DNA of 41,963 bases from Litorilinea aerophila (lineage in GTDB: Bacteria > Chloroflexota > Anaerolineae > Caldilineales > Caldilineaceae). Both the position numbers and the translations under genes were made by a program. The notes under the pieces are model-generated. The model was not told where the DNA came from, ran no database searches, and saw only the letters and a list, made by a program, of their open reading frames with translations. Shown one piece after another: positions 5,931 through 9,630 of this stretch (position 1 is the stretch's first letter; each line of letters opens with the position of its first letter). Where the stretch lies: contig CAMDQF010000012.1 of the NCBI GenBank assembly GCA_945905745.1, forward strand, positions 1-41,963, read 5' to 3'.

Positions 5931-5959
5931 TTGACATCCGGCGATAAGGCGTCTATACT
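5931..5959 (+). promoter_or_regulatory. near-consensus sigma70 promoter upstream of gatC leader
   Basis: TTGACA (5931-5936), exactly 17 nt, TATACT (5954-5959): the best promoter match in the window. The predicted start is near 5966. Confidence 0.8.
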
Positions 5960-5969
5960 GGTCGTCATT

Positions 5970-6059
5970 ATGAAAACTATGCAAACGTGTATCGAACAAT
6001 TTGAACGCAGGAATGTCTGCGCACCGGCCGCATGGGCAGCTAGCCCCGTGCTCCGGTAG
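5970..6059 (+). CDS. possible 29-aa leader peptide
   Basis: ATG at 5970 lies only about 4 nt after the predicted transcription start, so translation would be nearly leaderless. It reads MKTMQTCIEQFERRNVC and continues to TAG at 6057, running through hairpins H1 and H2. It has no run of one amino acid as in classical attenuators. Ribosome movement over it would disrupt H2, but the ORF may be chance. Confidence 0.2.
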   Translation: MKTMQTCIEQFERRNVCAPAAWAASPVLR

Positions 6060-6126
6060 CGGTATTTTGTTTGTCACCAGCGCCGTGAGCACATGCAAAT
6101 CACGGCGTTTCTGTTCTAAGTTGCGA

Positions 6127-6156
6127 CGCCGTGGATAAGTGCCACGGCGTTTTTTT
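6127..6156 (+). terminator. intrinsic terminator upstream of gatC
   Basis: Perfect 8-bp stem CGCCGTGG/CCACGGCG, 7-nt loop, then seven T. It lies 29 nt before the gatC start codon, so gatCA expression needs read-through, antitermination or a further promoter. Confidence 0.88.
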
Positions 6157-6184
6157 GTGCGTGTCGAACGGCGGGAGAAACCCA

Positions 6185-6475
6185 ATGAAACTGACCATCG
6201 CAGAAGTGCGCCATGTGGCGGAACTGGCCAAGCTGGAACTGAGCGACGAAGAGATCAACCACTACGCTGTCCAGCTTTCCGCCATTCTGGACTACGCCGA
6301 GCAGATTCAGGGTGTGGATACCAGCAGTGTGCCGCCCACGCCCTACGTTCTCCCCCTGCACAATGTAATGCGGGACGACACCCTGGGCGAGTGTCTGCCC
6401 AACGAAGCTGCTGTCGCCAACGCGGCCGATGCCAAAAACGGCTATTTCCGGGTGCGTGCCATCTTTGAAGAATAG
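6185..6475 (+). CDS. gatC: Asp/Glu-tRNA amidotransferase subunit C
   Basis: 96 aa, the usual GatC length. GatC is the small scaffold of GatCAB, which converts misacylated Glu-tRNA(Gln) and Asp-tRNA(Asn) to the amide forms. The start MKLTIAEVRHVAELAKLEL is the typical family N-terminus; GGGAG lies 8 nt upstream of ATG 6185. Further family features: DEEINHYAVQLSAILDY, then the extended arm VDTSSVPPTPYVLPLHNVMR and C-terminal EAAVANAADAKNGYFRVRAIFE, which wraps around GatA. First gene of the gatC-gatA pair; gatB is not in the window. Confidence 0.96.
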   Translation: MKLTIAEVRHVAELAKLELSDEEINHYAVQLSAILDYAEQIQGVDTSSVPPTPYVLPLHNVMRDDTLGECLPNEAAVANAADAKNGYFRVRAIFEE

Positions 6476-6478
6476 AGT

Positions 6479-6535
6479 TGGGAGCGCCGCTATCCTTAGC
6501 GGCATTACTCGCCGCCAGGGATGGCGGCGCTCCCA
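6479..6535. repeat. 57-bp REP/MITE-like palindrome between gatC and gatA
   Basis: Outer arms TGGGAGCGCCGC (6479-6490) and GCGGCGCTCCCA (6524-6535) are perfect inverted repeats. Two internal hairpins, GCCGCTA/TAGCGGC (6486-6503) and GCCGCC/GGCGGC (about 6510-6529), give a cruciform potential. It starts 3 nt after the gatC stop. Confidence 0.8.
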
Positions 6536-6550
6536 GGAATTGAGGCTGAC

Positions 6551-8032
6551 GTGAAAGAGACAACAGCGACTGAACTCCATCAATTGACCGTCCACGCGGC
6601 CGCAGCGGGGCTGGCTGCGGGTGACTTCTCTGCTGTGGACCTAATACGCGCTGTCCTGGCCCGCATCGAACAGGTGGACAGCCAGGTCTGCGCCTTTCTG
6701 ACAGTGGCCGGCGAGCAGGCGTTGGAACAGGCGGAAGCAGCCGATCGTTACCGCGCGCAAGGCGATAACCGCCCACTGTTGGGGATTCCCCTGGCCATCA
6801 AAGATGTGCTTTCCACCGAAGGAATCGTCACCACTGCCGGCAGCAAAATTCTGGAAGGCTACCGCCCGCCCTACACCGCCACGGCAGTAGAGCGATTGAA
6901 AGACGCCGGTGCGCTGATTATTGGTAAGACCAATACCGACGAATTCGCGATGGGGTCTAGCACAGAAAACAGCGGCTTCTTCACCACCCACAACCCGTGG
7001 AATCTAGACCGGGTTCCCGGCGGCAGCAGCGGTGGCTCGGCGGCCGCTGTGGCCGCGGACGAAACGTTGGCCGCTCTGGGCACCGACACCGGCGGCAGCG
7101 TGCGTCAGCCCGCCTCCCTCTGTGGCGTGGTGGGGATGAAGCCCTCCTATGGCCGGGTCAGCCGCTACGGGCTAATCGCCTACGGCAGCAGCCTGGACCA
7201 GATCGGACCGCTCACCAAAGATGTGGAAGATGCCGCGCTGATTCTGCAGGCGATGGCGGGCCACGATAGCCACGACAGCACCAGCCTGGATGCGCCAGTG
7301 CCCGACTACACGGCCAGTCTGACCGGCGACATCCGGGGCCTGCGGGTGGGCGTGCCTGCCGAATACTTTATCGATGGGATGGAGCCGGATGTGGAGGCCG
7401 CGGTGCGCGCCGCCATCGAGCATCTGGCCGGATTGGGCGCGGAGATCGTTCCCATCCGCCTGCCCAACACGGACAAAGCGCTCCCCGTCTACTATCTGAT
7501 CGCCACTGCCGAGGCCAGCGCCAACCTTTCCCGCTTCGACGGTATCCGTTTCGGTCCCGGCGGCAAGGCAGACCGGCTGCTGGACAACTACCGGCAGGTG
7601 CGGGGGCGGGGTTTTGGCCGGGAGGTGAAACAGCGGATTATGCTGGGGACCTACGCCCTGAGCGCGGGCTACTACGACGCTTATTACGGGAAGGCCCAGC
7701 AGGTGCGCACGCTGATCAAGCGGGATTTTGAGGCGGCCTTTGCCGATGTGGATGTGATCGTTTCGCCCACCTCGCCCACCACCGCCTTCCCCATCGGCGA
7801 GAAGGCCGACGACCCGTTGGCCATGTATCTGGCCGATATCTTCACTGTCAGCCTGAACCTGAGCGGGATGTGCGGCATCAGCGTCCCCTGTGGCTTTGAC
7901 CGCAACCACCTGCCCATCGGTCTGCAGATTCTGGGGCCGTCTCTGGGCGAAGAGACCATTTTACGCGCCGCCCACGCCTACGAGCAGACGACCGAGTGGC
8001 ACACGCGGAGGCCAGTGATCGGTGAACAGTGA
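6551..8032 (+). CDS. gatA: Asp/Glu-tRNA amidotransferase subunit A
   Basis: Glutaminase subunit of GatCAB (amidase-signature family); it releases ammonia from glutamine and passes it to GatB. I prefer GTG 6551 (493 aa, [18 protein letters not shown]) because GAGG lies 5 nt upstream and the alternative ATG 6521 falls inside the palindrome. The Ser-cisSer-Lys triad is present: Lys in LAIKDVLS, the cis-Ser in [13 protein letters not shown], the nucleophile Ser in [15 protein letters not shown]. The C-terminal part has [20 protein letters not shown] and [15 protein letters not shown]. The stop lies inside a heptamer-repeat array. Confidence 0.96.
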
Positions 8033-8379: not shown

Positions 8380-9630
8380 ATGAATATGACATCTGTACTG
8401 ACCCGCGAGAAGGGTCAAACCATCCCCACGAATGGACATAGCACCTTGCGACGCCCCCACCACAGCCGTCTGAGTGAACGTATCCATCGGGTGGCCCCTT
8501 CGGCCATCCGCCGCTTCTTCGACATCGCCGCCACAATGGAAAATGTGATCAGCCTGGGCATCGGCGAGCCGAATTTTGTCACGCCCGCCCCGATTTTGCA
8601 GGCCGGCCTGGAGAGCATTCGTCAGGGCGACACAGCCTACACCTCCAACGCGGGGGTGTTGGGATTGCGCGCATCCGTGGCTGAAATGTTACAGCGACGC
8701 TACGGCGGACCAGCCTATGACCCGGAGCAGGAGGTGCTGATTACTGTCGGCGTGAGCGAGGCCATGTATCTGGCGATGCAGGCCATCCTCGACCCCGGCG
8801 ATGAGGTGATCGTACCCCAGCCCTGCTTTGTCTCCTACACCGCGGATGTGATTCTGGCCGGGGGCACGGTTGTGGATGTGCCCACTTACGCGGCCAACGA
8901 TTTCGTCGTTACGCCAGAGCAGATTGAGGCTGCCATCACCCCCCGCACAAAGGCTCTGCTGATTGGCTATCCCTGCAACCCCACCGGCGCGGTGATGAAC
9001 AGGCAGGAGTTGATGGCGATCGCACGGGTCGTGGAGAAGCACGATTTGCTCGTCATCTCTGACGAAATCTACGACCGGCTGGTCTACGGCAGCCACGAGC
9101 ACGTGATGTTCGCCAGCCTGCCCGGCATGGCCGAACGCACGATTCATCTGGGCGGAATGAGCAAAGATTACGCGATGACCGGCTGGCGCATTGGCTACGC
9201 AGCGGGTCCGGCGGACCTGCTGGGGGCCATGCGCAAAATTCACCAATACCTGATTATGTCCGCACCCACCGCAGGGCAGGCAGCCGCATTGGCCGCCTTC
9301 ACCGACCCGGTGGCGGAGCTGGCTGTCCAGGAGATGGTCGCCAGCTACGACACCCGGCGCCGCCTGATTGTGAGCGGGTTGAATGAGATCGGACTGGACT
9401 GTTTCGAGCCGAAGGGTGCCTTCTACGCCTTCCCCAGTGTCAAACGCACGGGGATGAGTGAACACGAATTTGCCGAACAGCTATTGTTGGAGGAGCAGGT
9501 GGCGGTGATTCCCGGCAGCGCCTTTGGCAAAGGCGGCGAGGGCCACGTGCGTTGCGCCTATGCAGCCAGCCAGGAGAATATCGAAATCGCCCTGGAACGG
9601 ATGCAGCGGTTTATGCGCAGGCATGGATAA
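8380..9630 (+). CDS. PLP-dependent class I/II aminotransferase
   Basis: 416 aa fold-type I aminotransferase of the AspC/PatA-like group. Order of motifs: SLGIGEPNFVTP (58-69), TAYTSNAGVLGLR (85-97), GVSEAMYLAMQAILDPGDEV, YPCNPTGAV (197-205, Asn binding PLP), SDEIYDRLVYG (227-237) and the Schiff-base Lys K262 in GGMSKDYAMTGWRIGY, then the substrate-binding Arg region EGHVRCAYA near the C-terminus. An aromatic or alanine/aspartate substrate is equally possible. ATG 8380 has only weak ribosome-binding sequence; ATG 8386 is an alternative. The first 30 residues are an extension beyond the family core. Confidence 0.92.
   Translation: MNMTSVLTREKGQTIPTNGHSTLRRPHHSRLSERIHRVAPSAIRRFFDIAATMENVISLGIGEPNFVTPAPILQAGLESIRQGDTAYTSNAGVLGLRASVAEMLQRRYGGPAYDPEQEVLITVGVSEAMYLAMQAILDPGDEVIVPQPCFVSYTADVILAGGTVVDVPTYAANDFVVTPEQIEAAITPRTKALLIGYPCNPTGAVMNRQELMAIARVVEKHDLLVISDEIYDRLVYGSHEHVMFASLPGMAERTIHLGGMSKDYAMTGWRIGYAAGPADLLGAMRKIHQYLIMSAPTAGQAAALAAFTDPVAELAVQEMVASYDTRRRLIVSGLNEIGLDCFEPKGAFYAFPSVKRTGMSEHEFAEQLLLEEQVAVIPGSAFGKGGEGHVRCAYAASQENIEIALERMQRFMRRHG

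What the first reader, a model, noticed from the sequence alone, without database searches (positions are those of the whole stretch)
5931..6156. Unknown 190-nt structured RNA with consensus promoter upstream of gatCA
The strongest promoter in the window drives an RNA with four hairpins, two of which share stems and can swap, closed by a strong terminator 29 nt before gatC. It fits no riboswitch or T-box I recognise. Regulation of the amidotransferase by such a leader would be new; alternatively it is a free sRNA. A near-leaderless 29-codon ORF overlaps the first hairpins.
Basis: partly seen in the sequence, partly recalled or inferred. Interest (0 to 1): 0.65.

Follow-up and report, generated by a model that had tools for sequence, protein, structure and literature searches.

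The report
Alanine-codon leader attenuator before gatCA
The 190-base RNA upstream of gatC is best read as a switch in which ribosome speed along a tiny alanine-rich reading frame decides whether transcription continues into genes for a tRNA-amidating enzyme and a probable alanine-making enzyme; the switch type is known, but this alanine version in Caldilineaceae (Chloroflexota) has not been described as far as I could find.

Summary
The best-scoring sigma-70-type promoter in the window (TTGACA-17-TATACT) stands before a ~190-nt leader that ends in an intrinsic terminator 28 nt before gatC, with stems that can exchange. The "near-leaderless 29-codon ORF" is the key. In the family Caldilineaceae, 40 of 42 gatC loci with enough upstream sequence carry an equivalent 24-33-codon, mostly leaderless ORF with 5-11 Ala codons packed just before its stop. 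The Ala run uses all four Ala codons and favours rare GCA. The last codons (V-L/S/P-R) pair with the 5' arm of the next hairpin. That helix covaries strongly across genera (0/20000 permutations; 95% of cells paired against at most 51% when slid). The same hairpin arms can alternatively form two hairpins, the second always followed by a U-run. Downstream lies gatC-gatA-aminotransferase. The aminotransferase resembles B. subtilis AlaT, and in some relatives its neighbour is alanine dehydrogenase. Best explanation: ribosome-mediated transcription attenuation sensing charged Ala-tRNA, like trp or his leaders, with an extra relay hairpin. Rfam has no match. One alanine leader peptide has been proposed before (alaS, Streptomyces lividans). 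All evidence is comparative and computational; transcripts and regulation are unmeasured.

The parts
5931..5959 (+). sigma-70-type promoter TTGACA-17-TATACT
   Evidence: 11/12 match, best in window; a hexamer pair scoring 9 or more of 12 precedes 35 of 40 leaders
5970..6059 (+). leader peptide ORF MKTMQTCIEQFERRNVCAPAAWAASPVLR-stop, ATG about 4 nt from the predicted start (near-leaderless)
   Evidence: equivalent ORF in 40 of 42 Caldilineaceae gatC upstreams; ATG 6-10 nt after the -10 box in 28 of the 35 leaders with a promoter score of 9 or more
6021..6041 (+). control-codon region, Ala codons at 6021, 6027, 6030, 6036, 6039
   Evidence: 57% Ala at positions -14 to -4 before the stop over 20 representatives
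6023..6037 (+). segment A, can pair with segment B (hairpin over the ORF end)
   Evidence: fold; only weak comparative support
6048..6057 (+). segment B (GUGCUCCGGU; codons V-L-R plus first base of the stop)
   Evidence: covarying helix with C
6082..6092 (+). segment C as partner of B (antiterminator strand GCCGUGAGCAC); its 5' part is also the 5' arm of HP1
6079..6109 (+). hairpin HP1 (C:D), followed by a U-rich stretch in this genus
6100..6108 (+). segment D, 3' arm of HP1, can pair with E (6126-6134)
   Evidence: D:E own against foreign 1/20000 permutations
6125..6156 (+). terminator HP2 (E:F, 6125-6151) with U-run
   Evidence: U-run after HP2 in all 20 representatives
6185..6475 (+). gatC
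   Evidence: TIGR00135, 81 bits against cut-off 47
6521..8032 (+). gatA (true start may be internal to this ORF)
   Evidence: TIGR00132, 617 bits against cut-off 481
8380..9630 (+). class I aminotransferase, AlaT/YugH-like; probable third gene of the unit
   Evidence: best NCBIfam model PRK07682, 512 bits but below its cut-off of 620; follows gatCA in all 19 relatives with enough sequence

Best explanation
A ribosome-mediated transcription attenuator that senses charged alanyl-tRNA. A near-leaderless mRNA is translated at once into an Ala-rich peptide. When Ala-tRNA is plentiful the ribosome reaches the stop codon and covers segment B. HP1 (C:D) and terminator HP2 (E:F) then form and transcription stops about 190 nt from the start. 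When Ala-tRNA is short the ribosome halts on the Ala codons. B is then free and pairs with C, D is released and pairs with E, the terminator strand F is left alone, and RNA polymerase reads on into gatC, gatA and the AlaT-like aminotransferase. Shown by comparison: the ORF, its Ala codons, the B:C helix and the two hairpins are conserved. Moderately supported: the D:E relay. Inferred: ribosome stalling, termination and readthrough, Ala-tRNA as the signal, cotranscription with the aminotransferase gene, and alanine as that enzyme's product.
For: Leader ORF in 40 of 42 loci across the family, with 5-11 Ala codons. Ala is 57% of residues at positions -14 to -4; over the whole leaders there are 148 Ala codons in frame against 51 and 44 in the other frames; all four Ala codons occur. 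GCA is 46% of leader Ala codons against 8.5% in gatA and the aminotransferase gene (Fisher 3e-29); published theory expects codon choice and a high fraction of control codons to matter (PMC1183508). B:C: own pairs better than foreign in 0/20000 permutations while upstream segments are not significant; 95.4% of cells paired, 4 pairs with double changes, slid controls at most 51%. Changes of the last codons (L/S/P; V/L/A) track changes in C. HP1 and HP2 0/20000, D:E 1/20000; HP2 always has a U-run. With the ribosome modelled on the Ala codons (-14 to -8), B:C forms in 14-17 and D:E in 16-17 of 20. Conserved gatC-gatA-aminotransferase order; AlaT-like family; alanine dehydrogenase next to it in relatives. 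One copy per genome, only before gatC at strong E-values.
Against: No transcript, termination or regulation data. D:E is fairly strong even with the ribosome at the stop in about half of the equilibrium folds, and is absent in genus g17, so the relay relies on kinetics. The loss of B:C with the ribosome at the stop is imposed by the masking, not predicted. Full-length equilibrium folds favour the terminator in most cases whatever the ribosome does. GCA enrichment could partly reflect RNA pairing. Substrate of the aminotransferase is unproven. Two relatives (G004, G018) lack the leader ORF, and g16 is not found by the model. The gatA-aminotransferase gap is 348 nt here, so a separate promoter is possible.
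Confidence: 0.82

Rival explanations
1. The leader peptide is a nascent-chain arrest peptide: its sequence stalls the ribosome in response to a small molecule (for example glutamine, an amino acid or an antibiotic), not to Ala-tRNA shortage; the same RNA switch follows.
For: Ala-rich C-terminal stretch with a nearly fixed V-x-R ending; two Ala at -6 and -7 in 19 of 20 representatives.
Against: The V-x-R end is explained by RNA pairing, since its changes track changes in C. Number and position of Ala vary and the N-terminal half is not conserved. All four Ala codons occur and rare GCA is preferred, as expected for codon-level sensing.
Confidence: 0.09
2. A free-standing ~190-nt sRNA with its own terminator that acts elsewhere, merely lying before gatC.
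For: Own promoter and terminator. Terminated attenuator RNAs can also act in trans (S. meliloti rnTrpL, PMC7298713).
Against: Always next to gatC in the family, one copy per genome, none elsewhere at strong E-values. The strongest constraint is mutually exclusive pairing plus an in-frame Ala run, not an exposed seed.
Confidence: 0.05
3. A ligand-binding riboswitch or T-box.
For: A structured leader with alternative stems before an aminoacyl-tRNA metabolism operon.
Against: No Rfam match in the window. No compact conserved non-coding core: the conserved bases are codons and complementary arms.
Confidence: 0.02
4. A constitutive arrangement: promoter, short ORF and insulating terminators without regulation.
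For: Two relatives keep the promoter and one terminator hairpin only (G004, G018).
Against: Covarying B:C helix that excludes HP1, and Ala-codon enrichment in frame, have no role in this reading.
Confidence: 0.02

Closest known systems
trp/his/leu-type ribosome-mediated attenuators (E. coli trpL, hisL)
   Same: Short ORF with control codons, alternative RNA hairpins, intrinsic terminator, operon thought to make the cognate amino acid
   Different: Alanine codons; near-leaderless ORF in most members; an extra hairpin pair (six segments) relays the signal to the last terminator; other phylum; operon starts with tRNA amidotransferase subunits
AlaL, proposed alanine leader peptide before alaS in Streptomyces lividans (PMC8079986)
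   Same: Alanine codons in a short leader ORF (6 Ala in 22 residues)
   Different: That one precedes alanyl-tRNA synthetase in one actinobacterium; no sequence similarity noticed by eye; here a family-wide element with covariation, before gatCA-aminotransferase
Leaderless polycysteine attenuator ORFs of mycobacteria (Canestrari 2020, known here only by its title in the reference list of PMC9031893)
   Same: Leaderless short ORF made of control codons that regulates the operon behind it
   Different: Cysteine in place of alanine; other phylum; I did not compare its termination mechanism
Leaderless trpL of Sinorhizobium meliloti (PMC7298713)
   Same: Attenuator RNA starts with the ATG of the leader ORF
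   Different: Tryptophan; trans-acting roles described there were not examined here

Membership tests
ribosome-mediated (leader-peptide) transcription attenuator | short ORF upstream with several codons for one amino acid | tested here: met
   5-11 Ala codons in 24-33 codons, 40 leaders
ribosome-mediated (leader-peptide) transcription attenuator | mutually exclusive antiterminator and terminator helices | tested here: met
   B:C against C:D and E:F all covary; D:E moderate
ribosome-mediated (leader-peptide) transcription attenuator | intrinsic terminator before the first gene | tested here: met
   HP2 with U-run in all 20 representatives
ribosome-mediated (leader-peptide) transcription attenuator | control codons placed so that a stalled ribosome frees the antiterminator strand and a ribosome at the stop covers it | tested here: met
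   Ala at -14 to -6, B at the last three codons; masked folds. The covering at the stop is by construction
ribosome-mediated (leader-peptide) transcription attenuator | operon makes or uses the cognate amino acid | tested here: inconclusive
   AlaT-like aminotransferase conserved as third gene but below the model cut-off; alanine dehydrogenase next to it in two relatives
ribosome-mediated (leader-peptide) transcription attenuator | regulation by charged tRNA level | not testable with these tools
   needs expression assays
T-box or known riboswitch | match to a curated covariance model | tested here: not met
   no match at gathering score in the window; only sub-threshold sRNA terminator look-alikes
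AlaL leader of Streptomyces lividans | located before alaS, homologous sequence | tested here: not met
   located before gatC in every relative found; sequence similarity to the published peptide was judged by eye only
alanine aminotransferase AlaT/YugH | score above the PRK07682 cut-off | tested here: not met
   512 against 620 bits, though the best of all models by more than 130 bits; so AlaT-like, not assigned as AlaT

The most novel reading that the evidence does not exclude
A six-segment relay attenuator: the ribosome's position on an Ala-rich, leaderless ORF is passed through HP1, which in several genera lacks a U-run and so is no terminator itself, to a downstream terminator. It places alanine supply in control of both an aminotransferase and the tRNA amidotransferase subunits, and would be a leader-peptide attenuator in a phylum for which I found none described.
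Probability: 0.6. Interest if true: 0.66.

Novelty: new variant of a known kind. Interest (0 to 1): 0.6.

Why it matters
It would be a family-wide, comparatively supported alanine attenuator, where I found only one single-genome proposal (alaS, S. lividans). It would extend leader-peptide attenuation to Chloroflexota, where the papers I could search describe none, and links alanine supply to the indirect Gln/Asn-tRNA pathway. It also gives a clean testable case of a relay from one hairpin to the next, and a covariance model that finds the element in 37 of 46 family genomes.

Tried and rejected
Rfam scan of window and locus: nothing above threshold; the suhB and Esr41 look-alikes are terminator matches. 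Rfam on 20 gatC upstreams of other Anaerolineae: nothing. Ala-rich ORFs before gatC in about 60 genomes of other Anaerolineae families and before 30 aminotransferase genes: no comparable element. Covariance model in the class and phylum: no strong hit outside Caldilineaceae; hits at E 0.015-0.1 in single genomes are what chance gives over 199 genomes. Gln or Asn codon control (expected if the amidotransferase product were sensed): Gln and Asn codons are few and not placed consistently. Equilibrium folds of the full transcript do not separate the two states clearly; truncated transcripts do so better. A strict four-segment trp model was dropped because HP1 lacks a U-run in several genera. The leader hairpin A:B has only weak comparative support (435/20000).

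Full report
1. The observation. The promoter, structured leader and terminator are present as described. The promoter TTGACA-17-TATACT (5931-5959) matches the consensus in 11 of 12 positions and is the best site in the window on either strand. The region 5966-6157 folds to -72.8 kcal/mol, against a mean of -59.5 for dinucleotide shuffles (z -3.27). Terminator HP2 ends in seven U at 6150-6156, 28 nt before the gatC ATG at 6185. Rfam has no match.

2. Where it comes from. The window is one contig of a 6.4-Mb genome in 436 contigs. Congeners include records titled Caldilineaceae, so the family is Caldilineaceae, phylum Chloroflexota. A DNA search found clear homologues before gatC in four congeners (80-91% identity) and weaker ones in other genera.

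3. The ORF is conserved. I collected the upstream sequence of gatC from 44 of the 46 family genomes. Two stop at contig ends. Of the other 42, 40 have a short ORF of 24-33 codons that ends about 120-260 nt before gatC. The two exceptions, G004 and G018, keep the promoter and one terminator hairpin but lack the Ala-rich ORF. A promoter scoring 9 or more of 12 precedes 35 of the 40; in 28 of those the ATG lies 6-10 nt behind the -10 box, so the mRNA should be leaderless or nearly so; in seven, and in a few without a recognised promoter, the 5' leader is longer.

4. The ORF is rich in alanine. Over 20 representatives Ala is 25.6% of all residues and 57% of residues at positions -14 to -4 before the stop; positions -6 and -7 are Ala in 19 of 20. 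The correct frame holds 148 Ala codons, the other two 51 and 44. All four Ala codons occur at most positions. GCA is 46% of leader Ala codons but 8.5% in the gatA and aminotransferase genes of the same genomes (odds 9.4, p 3e-29). Published modelling of attenuators says that sensitivity needs a high fraction of control codons and a particular synonymous codon (PMC1183508). GCA could also be favoured by RNA pairing, which I could not separate.

5. The last codons are an RNA strand. The V-L-R codons (segment B, GUGCUCCGGU, 6048-6057) pair with segment C (6082-6092), with one bulged base. Across genera the helix is kept through matched changes: GUGCUC/GAGCAC, GUGUCC/GGACAC, GUGCCC/GGGCAC, UUGUCC/GGACAA, GCGUCC/GGACGC, GUGUUGCGG/CCGCAGCAC. 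Each leader's B pairs with its own C better than with those of other genera (0/20000 permutations); three neighbouring segments show no such preference. On an alignment of 24 sequences 95.4% of cells pair, 4 pairs show double changes, and sliding the helix drops pairing to at most 51%. Relatedness among sequences can inflate shuffle tests; the slid controls address that in part. In genus g16 the pairing is displaced and the covariance model does not find it.

6. The other helices. HP1 (C:D) and HP2 (E:F) covary (0/20000 each). D can pair with E (1/20000), except in g17. HP2 has a U-run in all 20 representatives; HP1 has one only in some genera. Where HP1 has none, B:C can affect the terminator only through D:E. 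This suggests a relay, [C:D][E:F] for stop and [B:C][D:E] for go. A hairpin A:B over the ORF end is predicted in the window but has weak comparative support.

7. Ribosome position. I masked a ribosome footprint and folded transcripts that end before F. With the A site on codons -14 to -8, B:C exceeds 0.5 in 14-17 and D:E in 16-17 of 20. With the ribosome at the stop B:C is zero by construction and D:E still exceeds 0.5 in 11. Full-length equilibrium folds favour the terminator in most cases whatever the ribosome position. The order of synthesis is therefore needed to make the switch work, as for known attenuators; this step is inferred.

8. What it controls. gatC and gatA score above their NCBIfam cut-offs. 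An aminotransferase follows them in all 19 relatives with enough sequence. Its best model is PRK07682 (512 bits, cut-off 620; next PRK families below 380), which scores above cut-off in only one of 14 control genomes (the list includes B. subtilis but the tool does not say which one passes). Its best solved relative is 1dju, also named as the nearest structure to B. subtilis AlaT (PMC6522883). AlaT (YugH) is reported to be the main alanine aminotransferase of B. subtilis (Sidiq 2021 as cited in PMC12893347). In two genomes of another Anaerolineae family the aminotransferase sits between alanine dehydrogenase (TIGR00518, 546-548 bits, cut-off 392) and gatB. The link of this gene with gatCA is thus older than the leader, which I found only in Caldilineaceae. 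Enzyme specificity is not shown.

9. Mechanism. Best reading: Ala-tRNA-sensitive transcription attenuation. The arrest-peptide rival is less likely because the fixed C-terminal residues are explained by RNA pairing and the Ala codons vary in number, position and synonym. The sRNA and riboswitch rivals are weaker still.

10. Known relatives. Leader-peptide attenuators were known from Proteobacteria and Actinobacteria and then reported in Firmicutes (PMC2965389). An alanine leader peptide, AlaL before alaS, was proposed in S. lividans with the remark that the type had not been described before (PMC8079986). Leaderless control ORFs are known: polycysteine ORFs in mycobacteria (title cited in PMC9031893) and trpL in S. 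meliloti (PMC7298713). I found no description of an alanine attenuator on a biosynthetic or gatCA operon, or of a leader-peptide attenuator in Chloroflexota; the library lacks most subscription journals. Membership: it meets the sequence-level features of a leader-peptide attenuator; regulation by charged tRNA is untested. It is not a homologue of AlaL by position.

11. Verdict. A real, conserved regulatory element with a well-supported type and a probable signal; a new variant of a known kind.

Noticed in passing
L171 and L172 (family f24, other Anaerolineae): Gene cluster with alanine dehydrogenase, AlaT-like aminotransferase and gatB in a row (gatC lies upstream on the same contig); alanine genes embedded in a gatCAB cluster.
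   Followed up: partly
L194 2067-3146 and L196 1904-3013: A sugar-phosphate nucleotidyltransferase-like gene sits between gatA and the aminotransferase in other Anaerolineae families; it is absent at that place in the window.
   Followed up: partly
L034 (G004) and L063 (G018), upstream of gatC: Two Caldilineaceae genomes lost the Ala-rich ORF and one hairpin but kept promoter and one terminator hairpin; real loss or assembly artefact is open.
   Followed up: no
leaders of 20 representatives, between the stop codon and HP1: A further small hairpin (for example GGTGTGAAGGTCACC in L041) seems to cap the B:C helix; a rough pairing test is weak (529/20000).
   Followed up: partly
G000:C96:8163-9254, with partial matches on C353 and C144: Alanine dehydrogenase homologue above the cut-off elsewhere in the window's genome, plus two partial matches at contig ends.
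   Followed up: no
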